From positions 1-64,000 of the forward strand of contig JAUHYP010000012.1 of assembly GCA_030426265.1 (NCBI GenBank): a DNA stretch of 64,000 bases, in the 5' to 3' direction. This document shows positions 13,926-58,999 of the stretch, piece after piece (position 1 is the first letter of the stretch; the number at the start of each line of letters is the position of its first letter). The position numbers and the translations under genes are program-made. This stretch comes from Gammaproteobacteria bacterium. Lineage in GTDB: Bacteria > Pseudomonadota > Gammaproteobacteria > Xanthomonadales > SZUA-36. The notes beneath the pieces were generated by a model. It was not told where the DNA came from, did no database searches, and saw nothing but the letters and a program-made list of their open reading frames with translations.

Positions 13926-16295
13926 ATGGGCTCGAACTCACGTTTTTCAGGCGGCCGGGCCGTCTTCATGTCACTGGGGATCTGCGGGCTGGCCATCGCC
14001 CACGCCGCCTCGGCGGCGGATTCCTTCGACCGCACGCAGCTGCCCATATCCGAACCGGACCCGGAGCATTACACGGTGCTCGACGTCCGTGACGCCGAGC
14101 CGCCACCCCGCTGGGAAGTCACGGCCCCGGAGGCCGCCCCGAACGTGGTGATCATCCTGATCGACGATCTCGGCTTTGGCGCGACGTCGACCTTCGGCGG
14201 TCCGATTCCCACGCCCACGCTGGATCGCCTCGCGGCCGACGGCCTGCGTTACAACAACTTCCACACGACCGCGCTGTGTTCGCCCACCCGCGTGGCGCTC
14301 AAATCGGGGCGCAATCACCACACGGCCAACGCCGGCTCGATCATGGAGACATCGACGGCCTACCCGGGCAACACTGGCCGCATTCCGAACCGCGTCGCGC
14401 CCCTGGCCGAGATGTTGCGCCTCAACGGCTACAGCACCGGGGCCTTCGGCAAGTGGCACGAGACCGCCGCCTGGGAAACCAGCGTGTCCGGCCCCTTCGA
14501 CCGCTGGCCCATCCACCAGGGCTTCGACAAGTTCTACGGCTTCATCGGCGGCGAGACCGACCAGTGGTCGCCGCTGATCTTCGATGGCGTGAAGCGCATC
14601 AACCCGCCGCGGACCGAGGACTACCATTTCACCGAGGACATGACCGACCAGGCCATCAACTGGGTGAAGGCCCAGCAGTCGCTCACGCCCGACAAGCCGT
14701 TTTTCGTGTACTTCGCCACCGGCGCCGTGCACGCGCCGCACCACGTGCCGAAAGAATGGATCGAGCAGTTCCACGGCCGGTTCGACGAGGGCTGGGACAG
14801 CGTGCGACAACTCTCCTACGAGCGCCAGAAGGCGGCCGGCATCATACCGGCCGGCACCCAGCTTCCCCCCAGGCCCGAGGACATTTCCGCCTGGGACGCC
14901 CTGCCCGAGGACCACAAGACCCTGTTCCGGCGCCAGGCCGAGGTCTTCGCCGGCTTCGTGGCGCACACCGACCACAACATCGGGCGCCTGGTCGATGCGA
15001 TCGAGGGCATCGGCGAGCTGGACAACACGCTGATTTTCTACATCGCCGGCGACAACGGCACCAGCGCCGAGGGCGGCATGGTCGGCATGTTCAACGAGAT
15101 GACCTACTTCAACGGCGTGCAGGAAACGGTTTCGGATCTGCTTCCGCTGCTCGACCAGTGGGGCAGCCCGGAAACCTTCCCCCACATGTCCGCCGGCTGG
15201 GCCGTGGCCTTCGACTCGCCCTTCAAGTGGACCAAGCAGGTGGCCTCGGACTTCGGCGGCACGCGCAACGGCCTGGTCGTGCACTGGCCGGATGGCATCG
15301 AGGCCGGCGGCGGCATTCGCAGCCAGTTCAGCCACGTGATCGACGTGGCCCCCACGGTGCTGGAGGCGGCCACGCTGCCGGAACCCACGGTGGTCAACGG
15401 CACGCCGCAGACGCCGATCGAGGGCACCAGCATGCTCTACAGCTTCAATGACGCGGACGCGCCGGAGCGGCACACGACACAGTACTTCGAGATCTTCGGC
15501 AACCGGGCGATCTACGAGGACGGCTGGTTCGCGCGCACGATCCACTACGCGCCGTGGAACACGGGCGAGCGCAAGCCGCTGACCGACGACGTCTGGGAGC
15601 TCTACCAGGTCGGGAACGATTTCAGCCTGGCCAACAATCTTGCCGCGCAGGAGCCGGAAAAGCTCGAGGCGATGAAAGCCCTGTTCATGGCCGAAGCCGA
15701 GAAATACCACGTGCTGCCCATCGACGATCGACTCATGGGCCGCACCAACCCCGCGATCGCGGGCCGGCCGGACCTCATCGGTGACCGGACCTCGCTCACG
15801 CTCTACGAGGGCATGGACGGCATGCTCGAGAACACCTTCATCAACATCAAGAGCCGCTCCCTGACCATCACCGCCGACGTCGAGATCCCCGAAGGCGGCG
15901 CCTCCGGCGCGATCCTGGTCCAGGGCAGCCGCTACGGCGGTTGGTCCTTGCACATGCGCGAGGGCAGGCCCGCCTACGAGTACAACTTCCTCGGCCTGGA
16001 GCGCTTCGTCGTCGAGGCTCCGGAGGCGCTGCCCGCCGGACCGGCCACCGTGGTGCTGGACTTCGACTACGACGGCGGCGGCCTCGGCAAGGGCGGGGAC
16101 GCCACGCTGCTGGTCAACGGGGAAAAGGTCGCCGAGGGCCGGGTCGAACGCACGCAGCCTTTCGTCTTCTCCGCCGACGAAACCGCGGACGTGGGCCTGG
16201 ACAACCAGACACCGGTGGCGAAGGGCATCGGGTATGGCCCCGAAGAGACGAAATTCACCGGCAGGATTCACCAGGTCGTGGTGACCGTGGAATGA
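13926..16295 (+). CDS. Arylsulfatase (sulfatase family S1), exported
   Basis: A 789-residue sulfatase starting at ATG 13926; a TTG nine codons earlier is also in frame. A signal peptide (about 1-31, AASA) precedes the alkaline-phosphatase-fold domain. The metal-binding start IILIDDLGFGA (Asp80-Asp81) and the formylglycine motif CSPTR (Cys118-Arg122, followed by SGR) are intact, so activity needs a maturase encoded elsewhere. The last 170 residues (from ITADVEIPEGGASGAILVQG) form a beta-rich lectin-like domain typical of the long arylsulfatase subgroup. The substrate is unknown. Its stop overlaps the start of the next gene as ATGA. Confidence 0.92.
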   Translation: MGSNSRFSGGRAVFMSLGICGLAIAHAASAADSFDRTQLPISEPDPEHYTVLDVRDAEPPPRWEVTAPEAAPNVVIILIDDLGFGATSTFGGPIPTPTLDRLAADGLRYNNFHTTALCSPTRVALKSGRNHHTANAGSIMETSTAYPGNTGRIPNRVAPLAEMLRLNGYSTGAFGKWHETAAWETSVSGPFDRWPIHQGFDKFYGFIGGETDQWSPLIFDGVKRINPPRTEDYHFTEDMTDQAINWVKAQQSLTPDKPFFVYFATGAVHAPHHVPKEWIEQFHGRFDEGWDSVRQLSYERQKAAGIIPAGTQLPPRPEDISAWDALPEDHKTLFRRQAEVFAGFVAHTDHNIGRLVDAIEGIGELDNTLIFYIAGDNGTSAEGGMVGMFNEMTYFNGVQETVSDLLPLLDQWGSPETFPHMSAGWAVAFDSPFKWTKQVASDFGGTRNGLVVHWPDGIEAGGGIRSQFSHVIDVAPTVLEAATLPEPTVVNGTPQTPIEGTSMLYSFNDADAPERHTTQYFEIFGNRAIYEDGWFARTIHYAPWNTGERKPLTDDVWELYQVGNDFSLANNLAAQEPEKLEAMKALFMAEAEKYHVLPIDDRLMGRTNPAIAGRPDLIGDRTSLTLYEGMDGMLENTFINIKSRSLTITADVEIPEGGASGAILVQGSRYGGWSLHMREGRPAYEYNFLGLERFVVEAPEALPAGPATVVLDFDYDGGGLGKGGDATLLVNGEKVAEGRVERTQPFVFSADETADVGLDNQTPVAKGIGYGPEETKFTGRIHQVVVTVE

Positions 16296-17074
16296 AGGCG
16301 CGAGATCAAAGCACGACGCCCCGAATGAGTGCGCTGTCCAGTGCGGTCCTGGCGCTCATCGCCATTGCCTGGTCATTGAATGCCGCGGCGCAGTCCTCGG
16401 CATCTTCCGATGACTGGCGCCAGACCCTGGACATCTACCTGCTGGCGCCGACCATCGAAGGCACCACCGGCATCGGTCCGACCGATACCGATGTGGATGT
16501 GGACGCCGAGACCGTGTTCGACACCCTGCAGGGCGCCTTCCTGGCGATGTATGCCGCCGAGAAGGAAACCTGGGGCGTGTTTGCCGACATCGTCTACATG
16601 GACCTGGAAGCGGACATCGAGGGTCCGAATGGCCTGGTGACCGGCGAACTGGGCAACAAGCAGTTCACGGGCGCCCTGGCGGGCACACGCCGGATGAACG
16701 AGCACTGGCAGCTGATGGCCGGCGCCATGTACACCGACATCACCCTGAGCCTGGACACGCAGGGGCCCATGGGTGATCAGCGCCGCCGCCGCAGCGAGTC
16801 CTGGGTGGACCCCTTCATCGGCGCGCGCTTCGAGACGCCCCTGGGGGAGAAGTGGGGTTTTGGCGCCTTCGGCTACTGGGGCGGCTGGGGCGTGGGCTCG
16901 GACGCGATGTGGTCGGTCAATGCCGGATTCGGCTACCGCTTCGGCGAACACAACGGCATCACGCTGCTCTACCGCTACATCGACTTCAACTACGAGGACG
17001 GCGAGGGCCTGGACCGCTTCCGGTTCGACATCGCCGAGCACGGCCCGGCCCTGGGCTGGCGGATCCGCTTCTAG
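16292..17074 (+). CDS. Outer-membrane beta-barrel protein coupled to the arylsulfatase
   Basis: A 260-residue protein with an N-terminal signal (cleavage near NAAAQ, residue 35) and an alternating hydrophobic pattern of beta strands ending in the aromatic RIRF. It resembles small OmpW/OmpA-like eight-stranded barrels (inference from length and pattern). The ATG at 16292 overlaps the sulfatase stop by 4 bases, which implies translational coupling; an internal ATG at 16325 would still retain the signal. It could be the export or entry route for the sulfated substrate. Its 3' end overlaps the convergent hydrolase gene by 4 bases. Confidence 0.8.
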   Translation: MKARDQSTTPRMSALSSAVLALIAIAWSLNAAAQSSASSDDWRQTLDIYLLAPTIEGTTGIGPTDTDVDVDAETVFDTLQGAFLAMYAAEKETWGVFADIVYMDLEADIEGPNGLVTGELGNKQFTGALAGTRRMNEHWQLMAGAMYTDITLSLDTQGPMGDQRRRRSESWVDPFIGARFETPLGEKWGFGAFGYWGGWGVGSDAMWSVNAGFGYRFGEHNGITLLYRYIDFNYEDGEGLDRFRFDIAEHGPALGWRIRF

Positions 17075-45292: not shown

Positions 45293-46570
45293 ATGCACAT
45301 TCAACAGCTCCTGCTCAAACAATTTCGTGGGTCTAGTGAGCTTCCTCTAGAGCTGGATAAACGTTTGAATGTTTTTGCGGGGATGAATGGCGCGGGGAAA
45401 TCTAGTGTTCTTGATGCCGCTGCCATTTTACTTTCATGGCTTGCCAATCGAATCAAGCGTTCAACAGCTTCAGGTCGGCCGATTACAGAATCTGATATTC
45501 GTAATGGTGAGCAAGCTGCTGGACTCAAGGTCATCATCGTGGATGCTGGAAGCAGTTTTGGGTGGAGCCTAGCAAAAGTCAAGCGAGGCTACGCGAGTAG
45601 GAATTTTGTTTCTGAGCTTTCCAGCGCAACGAATAAGGCAAAGGAGATTCAAACATTAATCTCTGAGTTTGATGGAAACATCAATATTCCTCTGTTTGCC
45701 TACTATCCGGTCAATCGATCAGTTCTTGATATTCCGCTGAGGATACGTAGCAGGCATAAGTTTGATCTTCTATCCACGTACGATGACTCTTTGACAAGCG
45801 GAGCAAACTTCAGAACGTTTTTTGAATGGTTTCGCGAAAGAGAGGACTTAGAAAATGAGAACCGAAAATACCAAGGTCAATTGGTAAAGCCGGAAGGCTT
45901 TCAGTTTCCCGATGGGCAGCTAAGTGCTGTTCGAAGTGCTCTTGAAATGTTCATGCCGGATTTCTCTAACTTGACGGTGCGGCGAAACCCACTACGCATG
46001 GAAGTGGAAAAGCTAGGGCAGAGGTTAACGGTTAACCAACTCTCTGACGGTGAAAAATGCCTGATGGCCATGGTAGGTGACCTTGCGCGTCGGCTGGCAA
46101 TCGCTAACCCCAAGCTTGGCAACCCTCTGAAAGGTGAGGGAATTGTTCTGATAGATGAAATTGATATGCATCTTCACCCAAAATGGCAACGCACAGTTGT
46201 GCCTAATTTATTGAAGGTGTTTCCCAACTGCCAGTTCATTATCTCGACGCACTCACCTCATGTGATCACGCATGTGCATCCAAAGAATCTTCATTTGATG
46301 CATTTGGTTGATGGAGAGCTACGAGTAATGCGGCCTGAGGAGTCTTATGGAAAAACTGTTGAAAGAGTTCTTGAAGACTTGATGGACCTTCAGACGACCA
46401 GACCAGATGAAGTTCAGCGTTTGTTGCGCAAGACATATGAATTAATAGAGAAGAGCGAGTTTGTGGCCGCTCGTGACTCAATAGAGTCTCTTGAAAAAGA
46501 AATTGGCGACGACCCAGAACTCGCGAAGGCAGAAGTGCTAATTAAACGGAAGGAATTGATCGGTAAATGA
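45293..46570 (+). CDS. Septu-like ATPase (PtuA-type)
   Basis: A 425-residue SMC/OLD-style ATPase. The Walker A GMNGAGKS is at 30-37; the phrase FAYYPVNRSVLDIPLRIR near 134-151 is characteristic of PtuA and retron-Eco78 ATPases; the ABC signature region LSDGEKCLMAMV lies near 254, Walker B IVLIDEIDMHLHP near 283 and the switch histidine in STHSPHVI near 321. The C-terminus is helical and probably contacts the nuclease. In Septu-type defence the ATPase controls an HNH nuclease that is released on phage infection. It overlaps the downstream HNH gene by 4 bases (ATGA). No reverse transcriptase or msr-msd RNA was seen next to it. Confidence 0.88.
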   Translation: MHIQQLLLKQFRGSSELPLELDKRLNVFAGMNGAGKSSVLDAAAILLSWLANRIKRSTASGRPITESDIRNGEQAAGLKVIIVDAGSSFGWSLAKVKRGYASRNFVSELSSATNKAKEIQTLISEFDGNINIPLFAYYPVNRSVLDIPLRIRSRHKFDLLSTYDDSLTSGANFRTFFEWFREREDLENENRKYQGQLVKPEGFQFPDGQLSAVRSALEMFMPDFSNLTVRRNPLRMEVEKLGQRLTVNQLSDGEKCLMAMVGDLARRLAIANPKLGNPLKGEGIVLIDEIDMHLHPKWQRTVVPNLLKVFPNCQFIISTHSPHVITHVHPKNLHLMHLVDGELRVMRPEESYGKTVERVLEDLMDLQTTRPDEVQRLLRKTYELIEKSEFVAARDSIESLEKEIGDDPELAKAEVLIKRKELIGK

Positions 46571-47199
46571 AGCACTTCATCAAGAGGGCTGAACCGCAGT
46601 CATTTTCGGCCTGGAAGGCGCAACAAAACGATGATTGGATTCCAACATATAGTGATCTTGGTGGTGTCGAAAAGAGAGATGTGAAATCTGCCTTGATGGT
46701 CGAACAAGGCTACATCTGCTGCTATTGCGAGCGAGGTCTAAAAGAACACGACTCACATATTGAGCATTTTCAGCCTCAGAGTGATCCGGACGTAGACCCT
46801 TTAGACTTCAGCAATATGATTTGTTCGTGTCAAAAAAGTACGTCAAAGGGTGAACCGCGCCATTGTGGGACCCTCAAAGCTGAGTGGTTTGACTCTACTC
46901 TTTTGATCAGTCCACTTAACCCAAGATGTGAAGATCGATTTTCGTACTTAGTAGACGGAGAAATTCAACCTGCCATTTCAAATGATATTGGAGCGCAGAC
47001 AACGATTGCGAAGCTCGGTTTGGATATTCCAAAGTTGAAAGCATTGAGAGCGAAAACGATTGATCCGTTTCTTGATGAAAACTTGACTCATGAGGATGTG
47101 CGACAGTTCGTGAACGCCTATCTAGAGCAGGACGAACAAGGGAAGTTTCAAGATTTTTGGACAACAATCAGGTATTTGTTTCGGGGCTACGTAACCTGA
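46567..47199 (+). CDS. HNH endonuclease of the PtuB / TIGR02646 type
   Basis: A 210-residue nuclease. The zinc-binding and catalytic core reads ICCYCERG (Cys51, Cys54), SHIEHFQPQ (His64, Glu66, His67), LDFSNMICSC (Asn83, Cys86 or Cys88) and PRHCG. This arrangement is that of the retron/Septu-associated HNH family. Together with the overlapping ATPase it should act as a defence effector that degrades DNA. The C-terminal half is helical. Base composition is AT-rich like its partner, so the pair came in as one unit. Confidence 0.88.
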   Translation: MKHFIKRAEPQSFSAWKAQQNDDWIPTYSDLGGVEKRDVKSALMVEQGYICCYCERGLKEHDSHIEHFQPQSDPDVDPLDFSNMICSCQKSTSKGEPRHCGTLKAEWFDSTLLISPLNPRCEDRFSYLVDGEIQPAISNDIGAQTTIAKLGLDIPKLKALRAKTIDPFLDENLTHEDVRQFVNAYLEQDEQGKFQDFWTTIRYLFRGYVT

Positions 47200-48031: not shown

Positions 48032-49849
48032 CTAGGTAAGAAGCAGAACGCAAGGATCGCCCTCCGGCGTCAGTATCGTTGTTTGTTCCATCGCACGCGT
48101 AATGCTGACACGGAAGTTTTGCCTTGCTTGGCCAAGGTCCTGGTTTCTGGCGTTGCCACGCACGATCCGATCAGGATTGGAGATGATGTTTCCATTCTTA
48201 CGTCGCGGCCATCCCTCAAAAATAATGACCTCATCGAACTGCTTCCCTTTGGCCTTATGCATATTCATTACGACGACGCCGGATTCGGGCCGACCGGCGC
48301 GTGCGAAATGTTCCTGGACAAATGCGCGCTGGACGACCTCCAGCGCACGTGCATAGGTCAAAGAATCGCGCCAAATTTGCGAGAGCGCAGTTCGCAACTG
48401 CGCACCCCGGCCAAGCAGGCGCAAATTTCTGGATTCAGTTGCCACTTCCCGAAGGCGTTTGCATTCTCCTGCTTCCAGAACGGTTCTGACTGCGCGCCAG
48501 TCAATCTCCGGGTCACCGGAAAGTGCAATGGCTCGGGCATTTCTGTAGGTGTCCAACATTGGCAGTACAAGGCTGTTCCGGGCGATTTCTTTCTTATTCC
48601 TTTTAGCCTGTACGGCCCTCTCCAGCGCCGCGTTGATCCTTGCAGACTCTTCTATATGTGTTTTTGCAGGTGTGACACCGCCGCGTCCTTCATAAAAATT
48701 GCAGACGAGTTTGACGAAGGAGCCAAAATCACCCTCTGGTGATTTTGGCTGAAGTAAAAAAGCGATGACTTCAGCGGCGAGGATTGCGGCTTCAACATCG
48801 ACGGCTGCGGTGTGACTAACGGGAGGCAACTGGCCCTGCTGTGAGCGCAAATGATCTGAGACCGCCCGCGTCATTTTCCTTGTCGGAACGAGTACGGCAA
48901 TAGACCAGTCCTCCTTTCCGCTGTCCAGTTGGCGTTTCCTCGCCTGCAATACCTGTGTCTTTATGGCAGCGTAAGCCTGGTTCTGGTTCGGGGCATAAGT
49001 GTTAACGGTGATGCCGCAATAGGTCTCACTCCCGAACGCCCCTCCCAAAATGTCGTTTCCAAATTTTGCAATGTCAGTGCCAGCACTACGGAAATTGTCG
49101 TTCCGTAAGTCAAACTCAGTTGGCCCGAACACTTCCCGGTAGTGATTAATCCTCTCCGGGTCGGCACCGATGAATTCATAAATCCGTTGTTCCGGATCGG
49201 CAAGAGCAATGACCTCGCTGCCATGCCCCAATGCCTGTACAACATTCCATTGGTCAGCATCCGTATCCTGGAATTCATCAAGGATGATGTAAGGGTAGGC
49301 TTCTGAAATAAGCACCCGGATTTTCTGACTGCCATGGAGGATTTCTGCCGTAAGCTCAGCGAACAGGTCAAAACAAACCCGTCCGTCCTCAAATGCAAGG
49401 CGCTTCCGTTCGTCCAGCTCCCTTGCGGCTTTCTCATTGGCTTGCGCGTCCGTAAGTTTGGAAGCAGCCGGATATTCATTTCGTATGGAAGCCAGCGCGA
49501 TTGCTTCTGCAGATGGCGTTAACAAGGTGATTTTTCTTGGCAACCCGATTAGATAACCGTGTGAGCGGATAAGCCGCCAGAAGAAGGCGTGGTATGTATC
49601 AATTTCGATGGCACGCTTGTCTTCGTTCTCAATCTCAGTGGATTTTGAGAGGGATTCGACAATTCGTGCGACGGTGGGGCGGGCGAAACTAAGGAATATG
49701 ACTTTCTGACTATGCCGTAACGACTCCCGTACGATCTTTCCGGCTTTCAGTGTCGCAACTGTCGTCTTACCAGAGCCAGGGCCACCAAGTACCAGCAGAT
49801 TTCCGGAAGCCGCTAATACACCCTTCTGTGCATCGGAGAGCTCAAACAA
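48032..49849 (-). CDS. UvrD/Rep-type helicase, GajB-like
   Basis: A 605-residue superfamily 1 helicase. Motifs in order: Walker A GGPGSGKTT (about 22-30), the UvrD Ia-like ARPTVARIV, motif II DEFQDTDADQW near 192-202, motif IV DPEQRIYEF, motif V VVVMNMHKAKGKQFDEV and motif VI QNFRVSITRAME. In Gabija the GajB helicase works with the GajA nuclease and senses DNA ends. The start overlaps the gajA-like gene by 8 bases. It is about 100 residues longer than the commonly cited GajB, so it should be called Gabija-like. Confidence 0.85.
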   Translation of the reverse strand: MFELSDAQKGVLAASGNLLVLGGPGSGKTTVATLKAGKIVRESLRHSQKVIFLSFARPTVARIVESLSKSTEIENEDKRAIEIDTYHAFFWRLIRSHGYLIGLPRKITLLTPSAEAIALASIRNEYPAASKLTDAQANEKAARELDERKRLAFEDGRVCFDLFAELTAEILHGSQKIRVLISEAYPYIILDEFQDTDADQWNVVQALGHGSEVIALADPEQRIYEFIGADPERINHYREVFGPTEFDLRNDNFRSAGTDIAKFGNDILGGAFGSETYCGITVNTYAPNQNQAYAAIKTQVLQARKRQLDSGKEDWSIAVLVPTRKMTRAVSDHLRSQQGQLPPVSHTAAVDVEAAILAAEVIAFLLQPKSPEGDFGSFVKLVCNFYEGRGGVTPAKTHIEESARINAALERAVQAKRNKKEIARNSLVLPMLDTYRNARAIALSGDPEIDWRAVRTVLEAGECKRLREVATESRNLRLLGRGAQLRTALSQIWRDSLTYARALEVVQRAFVQEHFARAGRPESGVVVMNMHKAKGKQFDEVIIFEGWPRRKNGNIISNPDRIVRGNARNQDLGQARQNFRVSITRAMEQTTILTPEGDPCVLLLT

Positions 49850-51626
49850 TGTCCGCTACACCCGCCGCAGCCCCTTCTTCTGTGTCAGCCGCCTCGTCCT
49901 CTTCAGTCGTTGAGGGACTACAATGCGCGCGGAGTGCGGTACAGGTTTGCCTGATCCATAGGGGGACTTCGTCTTCACTGCAAGTTACTAGGAAATCCGC
50001 GATGCTGTGGCTTCCCTTGGCCCAGCCGAAATAGTCTGAAAGGGCATTGGCAGAATCGGATTTTGGGTCTCCGAATTTATCTGTCAGGTGTTGTGGCCAG
50101 TCGAGCTCGTCAGCAAAGCGCTCTAATGCCCCTTGGGTCGTGTTCTTGAGAACTAGGTCTTCGAATCCATGTTCCTCATGCATGTACAGGTGATCGACCT
50201 GGGCATCAATCTTCCCTTCGTCGTCCTCACTTTGCTTGTCACAAACAGCAAATACCTCCTTGCCAAGCCCCTTGTATAGCTGGCCCAGGTCAGCAATTTG
50301 AGAATCCGTACCGGCATCGAGCGTTGTAATACCGAGGGATTCCAGTGAGGAATATGTTCCCGGGTCAAGTTCCGACAATCGGCGCGCTGCGGCGGGCATC
50401 GCCGCAGCTTCGGTTGCACCTTCGGCAATCAGAACGCGGCGGGAAAGAAGCGCTTCGCAAAACCTCGTGCGGAACTCTCTTCTGTAACGTTTGTGTTTCA
50501 CGCTGGACGGCAGGTTTACGGAGGCTGGATGCAGCACCCCATCAGGACCGCGCGAAAGAATAACTGTCTCCGACAGGTCAAACTCTTCAAGGACATAAGG
50601 GGAATGCGAAGTAAAGAGCGACTGCGCCGATAGTTTGCGAACCTCATGCACTATTCTTTTCTGAGCATATGGCGGGATAGCGGTCTCGGGTTCCTCCATA
50701 GCGAAGACGACGTTCTGCTTGTCGGCGGCGATTTGCGAGAGCATCGCAAGTACGAGCAGATTAATTGTTCCCGTGCCCTGGCGATAGAACGGGGCGGCAT
50801 GCGTGCCTTCCCCAGTTGCGACGAACGCTGTTATGACTTTGCGCAGATGCTCGCGTGTCAGATTGGAAACTTTAAGGTGAGGGGCGACCCCCCACTCTTT
50901 TGGGACGAACTTTTTGATTGAAGCTTCAATGCTTTGAAGTACCCCAGAAATGCCCAGCCCTGGGTCAGCAGCGACTTCATGCTTTGCCAGTTCCGCTATG
51001 GTTTTTTCCCACATCTTCGGGCGGATTTCTTTCTGGCGAAGGATGATGTCCAAAAGGCTGCCGCGCTCAATGCTTAGCGCACGTGAACCGGTGCGCAGTG
51101 AACGCAGGTAAAGAAAGCCGCAATACTGTTTGTCTTTTCTAAGGAACGATTGCCGGTCGCCTTCATCATCACTTTTTGAAAAATAGGTGTCTCCGGTGAA
51201 GTCGTCTTCGTCCTGGCTATATGAGCCGGAAAAGGCAACCCGCAGGGCGTGGATGACTTGGTCCTGATCGACATTTACGGGCGGCGGGGTGGTCAACAGT
51301 TCGCGCTTTTCCTCGTCCCACCACTCGATACAGTCTTTGAAACGTACGCGTTGTTCTTCATTGAGCTTGGTGATAATGGCTTCAATCTGAATTACCGGCG
51401 CATCCGCCCCCTCTGAGTTTGCCTCGTACTCTCCGAGGTAGAAATCGTGCTCATCTACGATGGGACGTCGGCCAAGCCGCTCCGGCCCGAGCACAAGGTC
51501 CAGCGCTTCAAAAATGGTCGATTTGCCAACATTGTTGTCGCCGATAAGGACAACGTGATCGGGAAAGAGCAGTTCAGCCTCGCGTATCCCTCTGAAGTTC
51601 TTGATTGTGAGTTTGCTTATTTTCAT
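49842..51626 (-). CDS. OLD-family ATPase/TOPRIM nuclease, GajA-like
   Basis: A 594-residue protein, close to the usual GajA length. The N-terminal ATPase has Walker A GDNNVGKST (29-37), a signature region RQGTGTINLLVLAML and Walker B VVFAMEEPETAIPPYAQ. The C-terminal TOPRIM domain has IAEGATEAAAMP near 400 and FAVCDKQSEDDE near 455-466, though the usual DxD is here DKQ followed by an acidic run. GajA is a nucleotide-gated DNA nickase that, with GajB, protects against phage. It is the first gene of the operon and overlaps its partner by 8 bases. The C-terminal tail is acidic and low complexity. Confidence 0.87.
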   Translation of the reverse strand: MKISKLTIKNFRGIREAELLFPDHVVLIGDNNVGKSTIFEALDLVLGPERLGRRPIVDEHDFYLGEYEANSEGADAPVIQIEAIITKLNEEQRVRFKDCIEWWDEEKRELLTTPPPVNVDQDQVIHALRVAFSGSYSQDEDDFTGDTYFSKSDDEGDRQSFLRKDKQYCGFLYLRSLRTGSRALSIERGSLLDIILRQKEIRPKMWEKTIAELAKHEVAADPGLGISGVLQSIEASIKKFVPKEWGVAPHLKVSNLTREHLRKVITAFVATGEGTHAAPFYRQGTGTINLLVLAMLSQIAADKQNVVFAMEEPETAIPPYAQKRIVHEVRKLSAQSLFTSHSPYVLEEFDLSETVILSRGPDGVLHPASVNLPSSVKHKRYRREFRTRFCEALLSRRVLIAEGATEAAAMPAAARRLSELDPGTYSSLESLGITTLDAGTDSQIADLGQLYKGLGKEVFAVCDKQSEDDEGKIDAQVDHLYMHEEHGFEDLVLKNTTQGALERFADELDWPQHLTDKFGDPKSDSANALSDYFGWAKGSHSIADFLVTCSEDEVPLWIRQTCTALRAHCSPSTTEEDEAADTEEGAAAGVADIV

Positions 51627-51686: not shown

Positions 51687-51854
51687 TCAGAGCTTACCCT
51701 GAATATTGTCGATTAATTGCGTCCTGACATCCTTGCCTTGATCGTCCTTAACCGCAATGAGGTACAGCCCTTTTCCGCCCATGGCCTTATCCCACAATTC
51801 GCCGATCAGCTTCTTTTCCTCTGTGTCAGAAAAAGGGGTCGGATGCAATTTCAT
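51687..51854 (-). pseudogene. Orphan C-terminal gene fragment
   Basis: A 55-residue frame MKLHPTPFSDTEEKKLIGELWDKAMGGKGLYLIAVKDDQGKDVRTQLIDNIQGKL lies in the gap between the GajA-like start and the PD-(D/E)XK gene. The sequence is protein-like and reads as the end of a larger protein; the 5' continuation overlaps the neighbouring gene's tail in another frame and is not convincing. I cannot name the family. It may also be a short real gene, but no ribosome site is obvious. Confidence 0.35.
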
Positions 51855-51927
51855 TCCACGATATCTGGGCACAGATTCTAGAGCTAGGAGAGGACATTGG
51901 ATGCGACCACATTTTTGTGAATGTTGG

Positions 51928-53334
51928 CTACGCGTCTTCTTGGCTGTCACTTGGCAACTCGAACTCGCGCGCCCAAACCAGGCCCTTATCCGGAATTCTT
52001 GCTTGTTCACTAGGAACACTGTTTGTCGAATTCTGTGTAATCTCCTTTTTGACCTTCGGTGCCGGCGGAATCCAGTTTTTGAGGTGCTGGCCTACATCTA
52101 TGTAGAAGCGAACCAATTCACGCTCTGCTTGTTCAACAAACTTTCGTTTTTGCTGAAACGTGCCGGCCAGGTCAACAACCCGGACCACCTCCAATCCCAC
52201 GGGAAGCGCCTTACAACCATCCGGTATGAGCCGGTTCGCATCCTCCCTTAATTCGACCACAGACTGAATCGTATCCGCGGTTCTTCCCGGCCACCGAGCA
52301 CGAATCAATGATTTGGAATCTCCAGAGTCGATCTGGCGAATCAACCAATTGATACTGGCCGAAGCGAACTTCTTGTCCTTCGGGCATTGAACGCCCATCG
52401 CGAAGACCAATGCGCGTCTAGCGAAGTCGGCGGATACCGAAAGCCTGCCTGCCGCGTTAGGAATGTCAAACTGATCAGAAAGTGTCTGAGAATTGACTAG
52501 CTCATCAACATGAGTTCTTATTCTAAGTTCGGGATCGCCCGCTTGTTTCCTTGTCATCACCAGGGACACTGGCTTCGCTACCGCCAAGGTCATTTGGAGC
52601 GCAAGAAATCGGGTCAATTGCTGCCAACTGCTCACCGCTTGGTTGACGTTCTCGGCACCCTTGAGCAGCTTCATTCCCTGCAGGACATCACTTGAAGTCT
52701 TGCGCCAACCAGCCCCAATCTCCGTCATCAGTGACACACCGGATCTAGGGTGTTGAAGGTAGCGAATCAGTTCATCGAGAATGAAGGCCTGCTCAGGGTC
52801 ATCGACCTGTTTGTGTTCCGCCAAAAGAACTGCACTGGACACCAAAGACAGCCAACTGAAATGGAAAAGGCCCAATTTCCCAAGCTTGGCCTTCGAGACC
52901 GGCGTCGGATGGTGAGTTGGAAGCGCAGCGAACTGATTCGAGATCGTGATCAGGGCATCACATTGAAGATCCCTTGCCAAGGGGATGTAGGACTCGATTT
53001 GCGCGGGAGTGAGTTCGTTACTTCCGACTTTGGCCTCAACCAATGCTGTCCAGGTACTGCGACCCGTATCGACCACGATCAACCCATCCGGTCGAAGTTT
53101 CCCCAGCTCTTTTGATTTCGCGACGACCTCTGTGAAGCCAAAGATTCGAGTACGCACTCCCCCCGGAGCACCGACGCTTTGGAGCAATTCGAGGGCGTAT
53201 GTTGGAACGACTCTGAATGTGGCTAGCAGAAGCGAAGTGGCGCGTTCTTCTTTCTTTGATTCAGGGAGTGTCGGTATTAGTCGAGCAACGTCGGCACATT
53301 TAAGCTTGTGAAGAACTGCTAGTTCCTGACTCAC
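51928..53334 (-). CDS. PD-(D/E)XK nuclease-domain protein of an unassigned defence module
   Basis: A 468-residue protein. The N-terminal 150 residues carry a restriction-endonuclease-like core: LRPDGLIVVD with Asp83, then WTALVEAKVGSNELTPAQIESY with Glu100 and Lys102, which is the PD-(D/E)XK signature. The remaining 300 residues are mostly helical without a motif I recognise; the last 50 are charged and probably flexible. It lies 79 bases downstream of the PLD-SNF2 helicase gene on the same strand and shares its intermediate GC content, so the two probably form one operon and function together. Confidence 0.72.
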   Translation of the reverse strand: MSQELAVLHKLKCADVARLIPTLPESKKEERATSLLLATFRVVPTYALELLQSVGAPGGVRTRIFGFTEVVAKSKELGKLRPDGLIVVDTGRSTWTALVEAKVGSNELTPAQIESYIPLARDLQCDALITISNQFAALPTHHPTPVSKAKLGKLGLFHFSWLSLVSSAVLLAEHKQVDDPEQAFILDELIRYLQHPRSGVSLMTEIGAGWRKTSSDVLQGMKLLKGAENVNQAVSSWQQLTRFLALQMTLAVAKPVSLVMTRKQAGDPELRIRTHVDELVNSQTLSDQFDIPNAAGRLSVSADFARRALVFAMGVQCPKDKKFASASINWLIRQIDSGDSKSLIRARWPGRTADTIQSVVELREDANRLIPDGCKALPVGLEVVRVVDLAGTFQQKRKFVEQAERELVRFYIDVGQHLKNWIPPAPKVKKEITQNSTNSVPSEQARIPDKGLVWAREFELPSDSQEDA

Positions 53335-53413
53335 CTCAGCACCCCCTAATCCAAATATTTAAGACCCAAGAATAGCGCAACCCTTGCGGTGACACTGGTT
53401 TTCGACAAGGTGT

Positions 53414-56400
53414 TCAAGCATCAACACCGACAATGCACGCGGCAATCCTTTCCTCCATCGGCTTCGTCCTCGGGAATTTCGCGAAGCTGCGAATGACGTC
53501 TCCACCCAGTTCGGCTTCCATCCCTAGCAAGTCCTTTCGAATATCTCTCAGAAGCAATGGCTTACGGCGTCCCTTGACCGTCAGGCGCCGATACCAAACT
53601 GGACGGATCACATCCAGCCAACGCGAGGCGATCTCGTCCCAGTCAGGCTGTCGCCCATTTGACCGACCTCGTAACAGGTCGGTCAATTCGAGATATGTAT
53701 CCAATCGTGATTGGTCCTGCACGGCCGCCGATTCAGCCGCCCAGTGTTTCAACACGCGTTCCATCTCCTTCAACGCGATCTGCTTCTTGTTCGAGAGCAG
53801 CTCGCGCTCACACTGCGACAAACGGTCAAGGAACGCGTCCAGCAGCCGTTGGTGGGCGCGCTGGAGTTGGGGAATGCTTTGCGTCTGTGGGCTCAGCCGT
53901 TTTCTGAGCTCGGAGCATACTTCGGCAAGGTCAGTGACGATCTGACCACTCAGGTCCGGCAGGAACACCCATCGCGGGGATCCGAGGGAAGCAGAGCGCA
54001 TACAGAAGAACGCCCAAGGTTTCGAAGTGCTCACAAGACTGACTCGAGCTATCACACGGACAGAAACGGTCCGGAATTCTTCGTAAATGACATCGGGGAT
54101 CAATCCCTTGTCATCACCGATCAGCTCCCTGACCGGCTGAAACGCATCCTGGATGCCATCCCAGGCCGTATCGGCCGCCTCGAACTCCTCGACCAGTTCA
54201 GTCGTGGATACCGGCTTCTCATGTTGTCGCAACATCTCCTCAGGCAGCGGCATGTTGGAGCCCAGAAGACTTTCCACCGTTTCGTACCGCTCCAGGAACC
54301 GCTCGTCCGAAGTCAGGGCGAACTCCGGGGCGTCTACCGGCCACCAAGCCTCGATACTTCGGTGCGGACTGTCCATCCTGTCCACGCGTCCTACCCGTTG
54401 CTCGGCAATGCGAACGACGCTGGGCATGTCCAAGTGCACCAACACGGAAGCCTGTTGCAGGTTGACGCCCTCGGACAGACTATCGGAACACAAGCCAATC
54501 AATCGTTTGCGATCCGACCCCAAAGAAAATGCTTCCAACAAGGCTGAACGATCAGATCCAGGATCACCCGTCGCGACAAGCACTTCGGTCAATGGGTCCA
54601 GGGAACAAATGCGTTGGGAAAGATCAGACAGGGTAATGGGCCGACTGTCGAAGGCGAGCAACAACTCGTGCTTGTCCAGCAATTTCACCAGGTGCTCTGC
54701 CTTGCGCTGTTCCCGTCCGTCGCTCATGGCGGTCGCCAGTTCCACCATCTTTTCGTAAAGCGCCTGATCCTGAGAGCAAGCACGCCTGTGGGCGTCTTCA
54801 TCGACCAACCACTCGGGCAGTTCTACCTTGAGCTGGTTGCCTGGCAGGCGCCCGGCAATTTTCTGAAGGCGGGTCAAGGCCCCTTCCAGGGGTGAAGCCC
54901 GTTCGAATCCGAGCAGCTCTAGTTTTTCGACGGCAACACGGGTGCCCGCCACATGCTCGACCAGCGCTGCTCGAGATGAACGTAGCGACGCCATGACCAC
55001 GTATCGCGCCAGTTTACGAGCTGAATTCAGTCGCCCTTCAAGATACTGTCGTTCATTCACACCCTGTCGTCGAAGGACCTCGGGCAACTCCAGGGCTTTC
55101 TTGAAGTGGCTCACCGCCACCAATCGATCGGCCAAGGAACGAATCTCAATCGCCAGCCGGCGGTCCTTTGCCGATTCCGACAACGCATACGTTTTGGGCT
55201 TATGCTTCGGGAAACGGCAGGGTCTACCGTTGCGGTCCATGTAGGAATCGGGGTCGCGTTGGATCAATCCATTGAGCATCCTCTTCGTGCGCCGGACCGT
55301 GAATCTCCCGATTTCAGAGCGCAGCTGACTGATTTCTTCTTCGGTCAAGGCGCGCCGGAGTGACCGGGAACCAAACATCTTCTCGAATGCCTCCACTGTG
55401 GATGGCTGCAGGTTGTCCGCCCCCAGCAGGTCGGCGATTCGTAGGAGGTCGGTCACGGAGCGATTGATCGGGGTCGCAGTGAATAGCAGCACGTGATCGG
55501 CCATGTTGCGGAACAGGCGCTGAGTGCGGTTGGAGTTAAAATTGACGAAGTTGTGCCCCTCGTCCACGCACAGCAACTGTGCACGCCGCAGGGATTCGAC
55601 CGTGTGCTCATGCGCCTGGCTCCGGGAGTGACTCAGGGAGCCATGCGAAAAACTCTGGAGATTGACGTTTCCGTACAGCGCTTCCCGTTCCCAGGCATCA
55701 CGCACAACCGGAGGGCAGACCATCAAGGCTCGACCACGCCTCAGGCGGCCGCGACGAAGATTCCGGTCCTGCAAGGCCCCGACGAGGTGTACTCCCATCC
55801 GCGTCTTGCCTGAGCCGGTCGCATCAGCAATGAGGACGCTGTCGTGGCTGTCCAGGATGGTCAGCGCCTGTGCGATGCCCAGCTTCTGTGATTCCCAGAG
55901 GCTGGATTCCTGAGGCAAGTAGTCGCCACGCAAGTACTCCGCAGCCCATTCCCCCTCGAGCATTTCGGCACTAGCTCTCGCCAGCGCCTCCTGCCAGGAG
56001 ACGACGCGCAATAACTGCTCCAGCAGGGCGATGAACTGGTCGTGGCAATCGCGTGCCATGGACCAGTAATTTTCCGCGATGCCCAGAGTTTCCCTGAAGC
56101 GGTCCGGCTCGTCGCGCTTCAGGAAGCGCACATTGGCTTCGAGCTGACCTCCGAGGCCGGCGTGGGTGAAATTGCTGGAGCCGAGCGTGACAGCCTCCGC
56201 CCCGCAGTAGACCTTTGCGTGCAGGCGTTCTCCACCCGTTGGGTATCGCACCTTGAAGATGCCTGACCGCAGCCGTTCGATGCATTCGATCAACTGACCC
56301 GACAACCGGATGGAGATGCCCCGGGCCAACCAGTAATCGCGGACCTCGTTGTCCAGTCCATCTCCCGACAACTGCCAGTGCTCACGCTGGGAACTGAATG

Positions 56401-56677
56401 GTTCATTGCCAAACAGTAAGCGCACACGGGCACCAGGCTTGCAGCTTGCGATCAGGCCGACGACGCGATCCAACGAGGCGTAGCCTGTCACGATCAATGC
56501 CTCGGCGGCACTTAACAGATCGTTTTTGACCTGATCTTCGACCGAGCGGTCATGCAAATTGAGCGGAAAACTCTCAGGGGAAGGCCAATGCAGCTCAGGA
56601 TTGGCAGCAGCCGCCGGGTGTGGCTCCCGGAAAAGATCGGGCGTTGGACCCGGGTGCGGAGGACTTCGGTCTGGCAT
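53414..56677 (-). CDS. Phospholipase-D-like nuclease fused to SNF2 helicase
   Basis: A 1087-residue fusion. Start ATG 56677 (MPDRSPPHPGP) was preferred to an in-frame start 33 codons upstream that reads into repeat sequence. Residues about 40-220 are a PLD-type domain with one HxK...N signature, LHAKVYCGAEAVTLGSSNF (His153, Lys155, Asn169). Residues about 255-840 are a SNF2/RapA-type ATPase: Walker A DATGSGKT (285-292), DEGH box at 372-375, LLFTATPINRS, and C-terminal motifs SLSEGVNLQQASVLVHLDMP and EQRVGRVDRMD. The last 250 residues are helical. A single HKD motif per chain implies dimerisation. DISARM has separate PLD and SNF2 proteins, but its other members are absent here. Confidence 0.85.
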   Translation of the reverse strand: MPDRSPPHPGPTPDLFREPHPAAAANPELHWPSPESFPLNLHDRSVEDQVKNDLLSAAEALIVTGYASLDRVVGLIASCKPGARVRLLFGNEPFSSQREHWQLSGDGLDNEVRDYWLARGISIRLSGQLIECIERLRSGIFKVRYPTGGERLHAKVYCGAEAVTLGSSNFTHAGLGGQLEANVRFLKRDEPDRFRETLGIAENYWSMARDCHDQFIALLEQLLRVVSWQEALARASAEMLEGEWAAEYLRGDYLPQESSLWESQKLGIAQALTILDSHDSVLIADATGSGKTRMGVHLVGALQDRNLRRGRLRRGRALMVCPPVVRDAWEREALYGNVNLQSFSHGSLSHSRSQAHEHTVESLRRAQLLCVDEGHNFVNFNSNRTQRLFRNMADHVLLFTATPINRSVTDLLRIADLLGADNLQPSTVEAFEKMFGSRSLRRALTEEEISQLRSEIGRFTVRRTKRMLNGLIQRDPDSYMDRNGRPCRFPKHKPKTYALSESAKDRRLAIEIRSLADRLVAVSHFKKALELPEVLRRQGVNERQYLEGRLNSARKLARYVVMASLRSSRAALVEHVAGTRVAVEKLELLGFERASPLEGALTRLQKIAGRLPGNQLKVELPEWLVDEDAHRRACSQDQALYEKMVELATAMSDGREQRKAEHLVKLLDKHELLLAFDSRPITLSDLSQRICSLDPLTEVLVATGDPGSDRSALLEAFSLGSDRKRLIGLCSDSLSEGVNLQQASVLVHLDMPSVVRIAEQRVGRVDRMDSPHRSIEAWWPVDAPEFALTSDERFLERYETVESLLGSNMPLPEEMLRQHEKPVSTTELVEEFEAADTAWDGIQDAFQPVRELIGDDKGLIPDVIYEEFRTVSVRVIARVSLVSTSKPWAFFCMRSASLGSPRWVFLPDLSGQIVTDLAEVCSELRKRLSPQTQSIPQLQRAHQRLLDAFLDRLSQCERELLSNKKQIALKEMERVLKHWAAESAAVQDQSRLDTYLELTDLLRGRSNGRQPDWDEIASRWLDVIRPVWYRRLTVKGRRKPLLLRDIRKDLLGMEAELGGDVIRSFAKFPRTKPMEERIAACIVGVDA

Positions 56678-57081: not shown

Positions 57082-57366
57082 TTAAATCCCCAGTGAACTG
57101 TGGAGCCTATGGTGATTGTAGTCCTGTTTCCAGGCGCCAATGATCCTCTGAGCCTGTGCCAATGACTTGAACTGGTTTGCATTCAGACATTCGTCCCGCA
57201 GCCGATCGTTAATGCGTTCAATGTGGCCTTTTTTCATGGGTTTTCCCGGGTGAGTGAAGTCGAGCTTCACGCCTCGCGCCCAGGCCCAGGCTTCCAGCGC
57301 CTTCGACGTAAATTCAATACCGTGGTCCACCGTGATCGAAACAGGCGCTGGTCGGTCGCGCAACCA
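57082..57366 (-). pseudogene. IS3-family transposase fragment (third element)
   Basis: About 93 residues are readable, from SITVDHGIEFTSKALEAWAWARG through HPGKPMKKGHIERINDRLRDECLNANQF to RLHSSLGI, then a stop at 57082. These are the second aspartate and the glutamate blocks of an IS3 transposase. The N-terminal half is absent, and the normal tail after SSLGY is shortened. With the neighbouring plus-strand fragment it shows repeated insertion at this place. Confidence 0.82.
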
Positions 57367-57397: not shown

Positions 57398-57871
57398 TCA
57401 TATTTTTTTGTTCAAAGGGGGGAGTTCAGAGTTGGGTGCTTCTTGTTGATAGACTGCAAGAAGATAACTCTCAATTGAAAGAGCGTACTCTGCAGGGTTA
57501 ATTGGGATCGTCATTATGGTAAACCGGCCAGATGCGATCTGGTCACGTATTAACTTTGGGACCTCTGAGTCGTCCCACCATTGGTGTGAGTCGAGCGGAA
57601 ACTGCTTATTGCTCCAGTTCGTGGCTCCGAGATGTGACCAGCATCTACTACCAAGTGACGACTTCAGCGCCATTCCAATGTAGAGGACTTCTCCGGTTTC
57701 AGAGAGATAGACGTAAATGCCATACTGTTTTGCTCCACATAACTCGTTTTGAAAGTTTCCTTCGAACTCCTCTCTCACATTGAAAAACAATGGTTTTTCG
57801 CTCGACACCCGGCGAGTGGCAAGAAATCCCAAATAGTTGTCAAAATGTTCGAGAAATTGTTCCTGGTTCAT
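57398..57871 (-). CDS. GIY-YIG-domain protein
   Basis: A protein of 157 residues from ATG 57871 (MNQEQFLEHF). A GTG nine codons upstream (57898) is an alternative start, and neither has a convincing ribosome site. The core YGIYVYLSETGEVLYIGMAL followed by LGSRCWSHLG fits the GIY-YIG nuclease fold (GIY, YIG and the arginine). The C-terminal half contains the glutamate-bearing IESYLLAVY, consistent with the family's metal ligand. Base composition is AT-rich. It could be a stand-alone nuclease of the island; a role in defence or in mobile-element biology is equally possible. Confidence 0.72.
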   Translation of the reverse strand: MNQEQFLEHFDNYLGFLATRRVSSEKPLFFNVREEFEGNFQNELCGAKQYGIYVYLSETGEVLYIGMALKSSLGSRCWSHLGATNWSNKQFPLDSHQWWDDSEVPKLIRDQIASGRFTIMTIPINPAEYALSIESYLLAVYQQEAPNSELPPLNKKI

Positions 57872-57967
57872 TGTTACGGGCTGCTCCGATGAAGTCACTT
57901 TGAGGTTGCAAGAATGTCTGTTTCGTTTCGATAAATCTTTATTTTCGTTTCACAACCTTTATCACGA

Positions 57968-58999
57968 CTAATGGACAGTTGGTGTCTCATGGGAGCTGGC
58001 CAAACCAGCCACGAATTCCTTTGTCACATCAACCGAGAGCGTTTCCCAGTCAAGAGTTTTCAAGCCACGTTCGAACAAGAGCTTCAACGACTCACCCGGT
58101 CTGTATTCAACGAAAAACATCACGGAAGTGTCGGAAAACAACGCTTCAGGCGAAAGTGGGTCTGACGAGAGCCAAGCGTATATGGTCATGTTCGGCATTC
58201 TGCCCTCGTACTTCTCCGACGGTTCCCAATGAAAGTGGTGATGATTTCGCCATCCGAAGATGCTTGTGATGGTTCTCGGTTGGCGGCCCAGTGGCGTCCA
58301 TTGGCTAGGTCCTTTTTGGTGAACGCGCACGTATTCGTCGAAATTAGGCTCAAGGGTCATTGCATGTACGCGAACGGTTCTGCCACTTGCCAGCGAAAAT
58401 TCGATACTTGGGTAGTTATTCTGGAAAGGAATAGAGGGGTGCCTGATAGCTCCAGAGACATGACGCAATAACTCGCCTGTCTCTTGGTCAATAGTGGTAT
58501 GAGCGATAATGAACTGACACGAAATTTCCGGGTGGGCCAGAAGTCGGCTGATGTCGGTGCTTGGGTGGTCAGTTCTAACGTCGGGCAACACAACAATTCC
58601 CAGGTTGCAGTTCTTGATGAGTTTCAGTTGCTCAATGTCGCAACTGGTGCGTTCACAAGGATGACCAAGTGTGATTTGGTAGTCGATTCTGCATTTTCTC
58701 AACGAGAAAATAGTCTTGGCCAGAAGTTGGCTTACCCTTGAAGCGGGTAGCAGCTTCAGAATGAAATAGACGCGTTCGCCCAATTCATTGCCATACACTA
58801 TTAGCGTTGAAACATCTTGTTCGTCTTCGTTGCGCCACCCTTCGAACCTTACTTGCAATGCAGGATGATGCTCGCTGAACCGCTTGCATAGTGCGAATGC
58901 GACATACGATTCGCTCGACAGTTGTTTTGAAGTGAGGGATGTCCAAGTGTCGTAAAGAACACGCGGCAACGAGATTTCGATATGGCGGAGGCTTTCCAT
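57968..58999 (-). CDS. Unrecognised 343-residue island protein
   Basis: A 343-residue, soluble, mixed alpha/beta protein. I recognise no motif. It has a central stretch with histidines and aromatic residues (GWRNHHHFHWEPSEKYEGRMP near 247-267) and a cysteine pair in HPCERTSCDIEQL. There is no signal peptide or membrane segment. Base composition is AT-rich like its neighbours. It lies 69 bases from the GIY-YIG gene on the same strand and 67 bases downstream of the two-gene winged-helix operon, so it may belong to either. Confidence 0.65.
   Translation of the reverse strand: MESLRHIEISLPRVLYDTWTSLTSKQLSSESYVAFALCKRFSEHHPALQVRFEGWRNEDEQDVSTLIVYGNELGERVYFILKLLPASRVSQLLAKTIFSLRKCRIDYQITLGHPCERTSCDIEQLKLIKNCNLGIVVLPDVRTDHPSTDISRLLAHPEISCQFIIAHTTIDQETGELLRHVSGAIRHPSIPFQNNYPSIEFSLASGRTVRVHAMTLEPNFDEYVRVHQKGPSQWTPLGRQPRTITSIFGWRNHHHFHWEPSEKYEGRMPNMTIYAWLSSDPLSPEALFSDTSVMFFVEYRPGESLKLLFERGLKTLDWETLSVDVTKEFVAGLASSHETPTVH

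What the first reader, a model, noticed from the sequence alone, without database searches (positions are those of the whole stretch)
51928..56677. Candidate new defence module: PLD-SNF2 fusion plus PD-(D/E)XK nuclease
A 1087-residue protein joins a single-HKD phospholipase-D-like nuclease to a SNF2 translocase, followed on the same strand by a 468-residue protein with a PD-(D/E)XK core. Two different nuclease chemistries with one DNA motor, next to Gabija and Septu genes, strongly suggests anti-phage activity. DISARM uses separate PLD and SNF2 proteins but needs other genes that are absent; Mokosh fuses PLD to a different helicase class. I cannot match this pair to a named system.
Basis: partly seen in the sequence, partly recalled or inferred. 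Interest (0 to 1): 0.85.

Follow-up and report, generated by a model that had tools for sequence, protein, structure and literature searches.

The report
Lone PLD-SNF2 nuclease, no fixed partner
A bacterial defence island carries a large DNA-moving motor fused to a DNA-cutting domain, which probably destroys phage DNA on its own; the second nuclease gene beside it looks like an unrelated neighbour, so the proposed two-gene system is not supported, although the fusion protein itself looks like an uncharacterised variant of a known kind.

Summary
The two genes are real and correctly read: a 1087-aa PLD-SNF2 fusion (53414-56677, minus) and a 468-aa PD-(D/E)XK protein (51928-53334, minus), in a low-GC island with Septu and Gabija. 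The pairing is not supported as a system. In a class draw of 369 genomes the fusion occurs in 11 and the PD-(D/E)XK gene in 13; only the window's own genome has both. None of 60 PD-(D/E)XK loci shows the fusion in its flanks, and none of 50 of those genomes tested holds it. The fusion is a conserved family (47-58% identity over near-complete hits) with no shared neighbour on 11 contigs of 10 other genomes. Distant PLD-SNF2 relatives mostly have a large adenine-methylase-like gene nearby (9 of 13 loci); this family shows none (0 of 12 contigs, some short). Best reading: a stand-alone, methylase-free branch of PLD-SNF2 restriction motors, probably a single-gene anti-phage DNA shredder working like SauUSI; not DISARM, Dpd or Type-2 BR as tested. 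The PD-(D/E)XK protein is a separate widespread family, fused to TerD in some actinobacteria. Defence activity of both is inferred.

The parts
53414..56677 (-). PLD-SNF2 fusion protein, 1087 aa: single HKD-type PLD nuclease (about 40-250), SNF2 motor (about 250-790), uncharacterised C-terminal region (about 790-1087)
51928..53334 (-). 468-aa stand-alone PD-(D/E)XK protein; residues 1-195 restriction-endonuclease-like fold, 203-424 a second domain resembling 2a8e and YbjN; judged a separate gene, not a partner
49842..51626 (-). GajA of a Gabija system (neighbour)
   Evidence: PADLOC GajA E 1.3e-257
48032..49849 (-). GajB of the Gabija system (neighbour)
   Evidence: PADLOC GajB E 1.3e-225
45293..46570 (+). 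PtuA of a Septu system (neighbour)
   Evidence: PADLOC PtuA E 3.1e-156
46567..47199 (+). PtuB of the Septu system (neighbour)
   Evidence: PADLOC PtuB E 3.7e-88; TIGR02646 E 2e-29
57082..57363 (-). C-terminal fragment of an IS3-type transposase upstream of the fusion gene
   Evidence: rve_3 E 1.2e-24, IS3 E 5.4e-23, model positions 273-361 of 369 only

Best explanation
The 1087-aa protein is a stand-alone, methylase-free member of the PLD-SNF2 (HKD + Swi2/Snf2) restriction motors, most likely a single-gene anti-phage effector. Shown: it belongs to a conserved, sporadic family with intact PLD and SNF2 residues, no partner gene shared between the contigs seen, and a place in a low-GC defence island. 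Inferred: two molecules pair through the single-HKD domains to make one active site; the SNF2 motor tracks along double-stranded DNA using ATP; and the PLD domain cuts the DNA through a phospho-histidine step at H153, as SauUSI does. Most speculative: with no methylase to mark self, the roughly 300-residue C-terminal region would tell foreign DNA by base modification or by DNA structure such as ends or replication intermediates. The neighbouring 468-aa PD-(D/E)XK protein is an independent stand-alone nuclease that lies in the same island.
For: Family: 10 of 368 other class genomes hold it, 47-58% identical over the near-complete hits, with PLD and motor motifs invariant in 8 of 8 full-length members. 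Sporadic: 0 of 20 relatives from genus to order, 0 of 10 other genomes in the order of one carrier. No partner: apart from the fusion itself, the only link between ORFs of different contigs (80 aa or more, blastp E 1e-6) among the window and 11 other contigs is GajA with an OLD-type protein in G019; no small adjacent ORF is shared on 10 contigs. Defence setting: Septu and Gabija here; HsdR, PDC-S23, OLD and PDC-S02 around the copy in G019, type III Mod/Res beside the copy in G140, SoFic near the copy in G223. Island: GC 0.45-0.60 against 0.61-0.69 outside. PLD profile: matches restriction endonuclease chain 2c1l (E 0.0018) and, at the noise border, 7clg 'putative helicase' (E 0.029) (that these are BfiI and SauUSI is recalled). 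Motor: Z 15-18 to SNF2 proteins, ZorD among them (8qy7, Z 16.1, rmsd 6.5 over 393 residues; the top row, Sulfolobus SNF2 with dsDNA, has Z 17.8 but rmsd 17.5 over 405, so lobes differ in placing). Methylase-free: 0 of 12 family contigs (window island included) shows an ORF of 350 aa or more with [ND]PP[YFWH], against 9 of 13 distant PLD-SNF2 loci.
Against: No functional data. Several family contigs are short (L083 5.5 kb, L078 6.7 kb, L076 and L082 8.9 kb), so a partner or methylase could lie off the end; the type III Mod beside the copy in G140 is cut by the contig end and so is missed by the motif test. Only 3 of 10 other carriers were shown to have PADLOC-matched neighbours; the table shows 25 of 81 families, one hit (LmuA) was not traced, and no background rate of defence genes was measured. 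The C-terminal region and much of the model are low confidence (mean pLDDT 64; 793-905 under 50), so no recognition domain is shown. The phylum draw found no member beyond the own genome in 398. In some searches at most two candidates per genome were scored, so copies may have been missed.
Confidence: 0.55

Rival explanations
1. One reading: PLD-SNF2 and PD-(D/E)XK proteins act together as one anti-phage system.
For: Adjacent, same strand, 79 nt apart; both have intact active-site residues.
Against: Only the own genome of 369 holds both; chance alone predicts about 0.3 shared among the 10 and 12 other carriers, and none was seen. 0 of 60 loci and 0 of 50 genomes of the PD-(D/E)XK family hold the fusion. 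Different GC. Each gene is found without the other elsewhere.
Confidence: 0.04
2. The fusion is an orphan remnant of a methylase-linked PLD-SNF2 restriction system that lost its methylase and is decaying.
For: Distant relatives have large methylase-like genes nearby (9 of 13 loci); 3 of 3 of these that were scanned match type IIG models. One family copy (G223) carries an in-frame TAG in its matched range.
Against: The eight family members tested form one group (100/100), none with a methylase-like ORF in its stretch, and the catalytic residues are kept at 48-58% identity to the window protein, which decay would not allow.
Confidence: 0.1
3. A DNA-repair or transcription-recycling motor of the RapA/HepA sort rather than a defence protein.
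For: RapA is the best sequence match among solved structures (E 3.3e-11, profile positions 664-772).
Against: Sporadic occurrence, island setting, fused PLD nuclease, and higher NCBIfam scores to DpdE (99 bits) and DrmD (49) than to RapA (30).
Confidence: 0.12
4. An accessory restriction subunit that borrows the sites of neighbouring type I or type III enzymes.
For: It lies directly after HsdR in G019 and after Res in G140, 79 and 48 nt away.
Against: Shown in only these 2 of 10 other carrier genomes; neither enzyme was found among the island proteins scanned in the window.
Confidence: 0.1

Closest known systems
HKD + Swi2/Snf2 helicase of Type-2 BR (BREX-related) systems; PADLOC C3a139 'HKD+Snf2'
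   Same: N-terminal HKD nuclease fused to a Swi2/Snf2 motor in one chain (PMC12839542, sections 30 and 31 and passages read).
   Different: C3a139 matches the window protein with 25 bits over 42 residues (8 of 8 family members match, best E 6.5e-10), but matches the distant relative L118 with 219 bits over 823 residues. Type-2 BR loci are described with an N6-methylase, DUF499 and DUF3780; no methylase-like ORF lies in this island.
SauUSI (type IV restriction enzyme)
   Same: One polypeptide with PLD nuclease, SF2 motor and recognition domain; dimer held by the nuclease domains, ATP-driven translocation, shredding (PMC7913695, passages read).
   Different: By that paper the SauUSI motor aligns with HsdR and LlaBIII; here it is of SNF2 type. 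An SRA-like recognition domain is not shown here (low-confidence C-terminus).
DISARM DrmD and Dpd DpdE motors
   Same: SNF2 motor core; DpdE is the best NCBIfam match (99 bits), DrmD 49 bits.
   Different: Both far under the curated cut-offs (500 and 610 bits); the best stretches lie in the motor, and no other DISARM or Dpd gene was identified among the island proteins scanned.
PbeA (HKD + SF2 helicase of CxC-ABC/Pbe systems)
   Same: HKD endoDNase fused to an SF2 motor (PMC10853773, passages read).
   Different: PbeA works with an ABC ATPase, a DndE-like protein and a small protein by that paper; PADLOC PbeA is matched by 4 of 8 family members, best E 3.1e-7.
Mokosh type II
   Same: PLD-like domain listed for Mokosh types I and II (PMC10952713, passages read).
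   Different: RNA-helicase class motor (recalled); no Mokosh model among the 22 PADLOC families that match the fusion.

Membership tests
Two-gene module as proposed | The two genes co-occur in other genomes | tested here: not met
   Own genome only of 369; 0 of 60 loci; 0 of 50 genomes.
Type-2 BR system | N-terminal HKD nuclease fused to Snf2 motor | tested here: met
Type-2 BR system | N6-methylase in the locus | tested here: not met
   No ORF of 350 aa or more with [ND]PP[YFWH] between 45.0 and 60.3 kb; no methylase domain among the island proteins scanned.
Type-2 BR system | DUF3780 protein | tested here: inconclusive
   No match in the own genome, but the control genomes did not ring either.
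Type-2 BR system | DUF499 ATPase | tested here: inconclusive
   Not among the Pfam hits of the 10 proteins (9 of them island genes); not searched in the rest of the genome.
DISARM | DrmD-type SNF2 protein over the curated cut-off | tested here: not met
   NCBIfam DrmD 48.9 bits against 610.
DISARM | Companion genes (DrmA, DrmB, DrmC, methylase) beside it | tested here: not met
   The island proteins scanned have other best matches (Gabija, Septu) or none; the only DISARM hits are motor-level matches of the fusion. Two small ORFs (130 and 133 aa) were not scanned against PADLOC.
Dpd | DpdE over the curated cut-off | tested here: not met
   99.3 bits against 500.
SauUSI-type type IV enzyme | Single chain with PLD nuclease and ATP-driven motor, no methylase | tested here: met
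   At the level of domains and residues only.
SauUSI-type type IV enzyme | SRA-like recognition domain and dependence on methylated DNA | tested here: inconclusive
   C-terminal region modelled at low confidence; the activity needs a bench test.
Gabija | GajA and GajB, adjacent, matching their models | tested here: met
   neighbour genes only, not the finding.

The most novel reading that the evidence does not exclude
A methylase-free clade of PLD-SNF2 motors, seen here in one bacterial class with two more distant alphaproteobacterial plasmid relatives, is a self-sufficient single-gene defence that tells foreign DNA without a methylation mark, through its own uncharacterised C-terminal region: an SNF2-powered counterpart of type IV enzymes, split off from PLD-SNF2 systems that work beside a type IIG-like methylase.
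Probability: 0.4. Interest if true: 0.6.

Novelty: new variant of a known kind. Interest (0 to 1): 0.42.

Why it matters
It takes a doubtful two-gene system off the candidate list and replaces it with a sharper target: a one-gene, methylase-free PLD-SNF2 enzyme with distant relatives that do have a methylase nearby. That contrast makes a direct test possible of how such motors tell self from foreign DNA. The other gene turns out to belong to a widespread, unnamed PD-(D/E)XK family, which is joined to TerD in some actinobacteria and may help to explain the old link between tellurite-resistance genes and phage resistance (that link is recalled).

Tried and rejected
The pair as a system: disfavoured by co-occurrence. 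A hidden small partner of the fusion: no shared ORF of 35-399 aa within 700 nt upstream or 500 nt downstream on 10 contigs, the window included (the two partial contigs L083 and L084 were not used). Viral homologues: none confirmed for the single protein in viral contigs, no match in phage records; the alignment found six distant loci, of which I examined one (L109), with a methylase-like gene beside it. Plasmids: 37 records with a match, none covering 80% of the fusion. More family members by order-level searches around two carriers: the groups were small, 1 and 11 genomes. The phylum draw gave the own genome only. DUF3780 in the own genome: empty, but its control was empty too. Promoter scan: none found where shuffles give 2.6, so uninformative. 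Fold search of the fusion: motor only; PLD and C-terminal parts barely tested. An empty integration site: not shown; beyond the mutase gene neither the island nor its outer flank was found in the relatives' stretches, apart from one weak 28.5% match of a gene at 71.8 kb. Papers: searches; in their listings and in the passages or sections I read of six papers (PMC12839542, PMC10853773, PMC12458937, PMC7913695, PMC11090510, PMC10952713) I saw HKD-SNF2 or HKD-SF2 fusions within multi-gene systems, and SauUSI, but no stand-alone PLD-SNF2 system; this covers only the held library. One search (TerD terms): listing only, nothing opened.

Rows left out: the neighbour scans used 67 of 69 listed ORFs around the fusion and 98 of 104 around the PD-(D/E)XK gene, and the second list had already left out ORFs of 900 aa or more, which would hide large restriction enzymes. 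The PADLOC table shows 25 of 81 families; the LmuA hit was not traced to its ORF. One search used 50 of 60 genomes (cap; left out L049-L051, L053-L057, L059, L060). Alignment A1 used 8 of 12 fusion ORFs (partial ones out); A2 used 21 of 61 sequences. The 12 plasmid loci (of 37) and one viral locus (of 6) used for the methylase comparison were picked by hand, with flanks of 6-9 kb that are longer than those of several family contigs. The tree used 19 rows; L127 (truncated) and L129 (no HKD motif by pattern) were left out, and its long branches make the position of L120 and L124 uncertain.

Full report
What is there. The minus strand of 48-57 kb reads PLD-SNF2 fusion (56677-53414), PD-(D/E)XK protein (53334-51928), GajA, GajB; Septu PtuA and PtuB lie on the plus strand at 45.3-47.2 kb. 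The block 45-60 kb has GC 0.45-0.60 between flanks of 0.61-0.69. Its genes were not found after the conserved mutase gene in the stretches of four relatives, but two of the four stretches are short and the outer flank was not found there either, apart from one weak match (28.5% identity) of a gene at 71.8 kb, so an empty site is not shown. I read it as a foreign, mosaic defence island. Within it, GC and GC3 differ by gene: Septu GC 0.44-0.46, Gabija 0.53, PD-(D/E)XK 0.525 with GC3 0.554, PLD-SNF2 0.588 with GC3 0.684. That fits separate arrivals but does not prove them.

The fusion protein. Pfam finds SNF2 and helicase C domains over cut-off in the window protein and PLDc_2 under its cut-off; PLDc_2 appears in 8 of 8 full-length family members. 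The N-terminal 250 residues as a profile match a virion nicking-joining enzyme (E 4.2e-6), a restriction endonuclease (2c1l, E 0.0018) and, at the noise border, a 953-aa 'putative helicase' 7clg (E 0.029); I recall the last two as BfiI and SauUSI. The motor matches solved SNF2 proteins at Z 15-18. H153, K155, N169, K291, the DE and H of motif II and the arginines of motif VI are invariant in 8 of 8. The family is found in 10 of 368 other genomes of the class, at 47-58% identity over the near-complete hits, but in 0 of 20 relatives, 0 of 10 other genomes in the order of one carrier and no further genome of a 398-genome phylum draw. In some searches at most two candidates per genome were scored, so these are lower bounds. 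The family is sporadic, as mobile defence genes are.

No partner. Clustering the called ORFs of the window and of 11 contigs from 10 genomes (80 aa or more, blastp E 1e-6) linked nothing across contigs except the fusion itself and GajA with an OLD-type protein in G019. Short adjacent ORFs are not shared on the 10 contigs tested. PADLOC scans found defence genes around the copies in G019 (HsdR, PDC-S23, OLD, PDC-S02) and G140 (type III Mod/Res), and SoFic near the copy in G223; in the pooled scan of 67 neighbours 25 of 81 matched families are shown and a LmuA hit was not traced. No background rate was measured, so I call the island link suggestive only.

The second gene. The 468-aa protein has relatives in 60 loci, 12 of 368 other class genomes and 11 actinobacterial plasmid records, in 10 of which the matched gene is annotated as TerD family (the eleventh record has no annotation). 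Pfam finds an N-terminal TerD domain in 2 of 3 actinobacterial members scanned. RPDG, ExK and an upstream Glu are invariant in 21 of 21. Its model (mean pLDDT 87.5) aligns at residues 1-195 with AF1548 (Z 8.3, rmsd 3.1 over 114), the Can2 nucleases, PaqCI, FokI and other restriction-type nucleases, and at 203-424 with 2a8e (Z 8.1, rmsd 4.0 over 170; I recall it as YktB) and the YbjN/AmyR proteins (Z 7.2-7.4); such Z values are middling, and Foldseek gave nothing at E <= 0.001. Among 98 immediate neighbours scanned, six PADLOC families matched, one protein each, and the Pfam families shown (25 of 59) are mostly metabolic; ORFs of 900 aa or more had been left out. Its GC is lower than its flanks in 54 of 59 loci, median -0.065. 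It looks like an accessory gene that travels alone.

No pairing. each examined 369 genomes of the class; the carriers listed overlap only in the window's genome, where about 0.3 would be expected by chance among the others. 0 of 60 PD-(D/E)XK loci shows the fusion within the DNA held (5.6-21 kb; the window's own locus L061 was found by the same search), and 0 of 50 of those genomes holds it at E <= 1e-60 (the same profile found known carriers).

Comparison with methylase-linked relatives. I fetched 12 of the 37 plasmid records with distant matches, picked by hand, and used one of six viral loci. In 9 of these 13 loci a large ORF of 1088-1375 aa with an NPP[YW] motif lies in the stretch; 3 of 3 of these ORFs that were scanned match type IIG methylase models. 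In 0 of 12 family contigs, counting the window island, is there an ORF of 350 aa or more with such a motif, although one type III Mod is cut off at a contig end (L077) and several contigs are short. A tree of 19 rows puts the eight family members on one side of a branch with 100/100 support, and groups two alphaproteobacterial plasmid proteins without a methylase-like neighbour with them (also 100/100, but on long branches, so unsure). One of these two, L120, lies upstream of SIR2-HerA and Septu genes.

How it probably works. Single-HKD nucleases need two chains for one active site (established for this superfamily, recalled; SauUSI is a dimer held by its nuclease domains, PMC7913695, passages read). 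I infer a dimer, ATP-driven tracking on duplex DNA and PLD cleavage, with recognition by the C-terminal region. What triggers it is not shown. Because no methylase is seen that would protect the host in cis, recognition of modified or abnormal DNA is more likely than ordinary restriction.

Place among known systems. HKD-Snf2 fusions are known from Type-2 BR systems (PMC12839542, two sections and passages read) and HKD-SF2 fusions from Pbe systems (PMC10853773, passages read). The window protein fails the curated cut-offs of DrmD and DpdE and the methylase test of Type-2 BR. It is therefore a new variant of a known kind, with single-protein action like SauUSI the best-supported analogy. Interest is moderate: the two-gene novelty is gone, the one-gene family is worth a bench test.

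Noticed in passing
L049:9131-11167, L053:7310-9418, plasmid hits H1-H11: The PD-(D/E)XK family is the C-terminal part of TerD-domain proteins in some actinobacteria (TerD E 7.4e-34 and 4e-48 in 2 of 3 scanned), an unnamed TerD-nuclease fusion.
   Followed up: partly
window 51928-53334, residues 203-424 of the protein: A second domain resembling 2a8e (Z 8.1) and YbjN/AmyR (Z 7.2-7.4) follows the nuclease domain; role unknown, scores middling.
   Followed up: partly
L109:7503-14602 (viral contig): A distant PLD-SNF2 gene is followed directly by a 1176-aa adenine-methylase-like gene; further on, an ORF (15362-16612) looks by eye like a cytosine methylase.
   Followed up: partly
L120:1-8583 (Neotabrizicola plasmid): A PLD-SNF2 relative without a methylase-like ORF in the stretch seen sits upstream of SIR2-HerA and Septu genes.
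   Followed up: yes
window 51687-52019 minus: A 110-aa ORF reaching into the 301-nt gap between the PD-(D/E)XK gene and GajA may be a gene remnant; no Pfam match at E <= 1.
   Followed up: partly
window 57398-57898 and 57968-58999 minus: A GIY-YIG-like 166-aa protein (E 0.04) and a 343-aa protein without a convincing match lie upstream of the IS3 fragment; both may be further island genes.
   Followed up: partly
G223:C26:10974-14264: One family copy has an in-frame TAG within its matched range, so it may start later or be damaged.
   Followed up: no
window 53414-56677, motif at residues 153-169: The Asp of the HKD triad is Ala here and in one other member, Glu in another, Asp in 7 of 10.
   Followed up: yes
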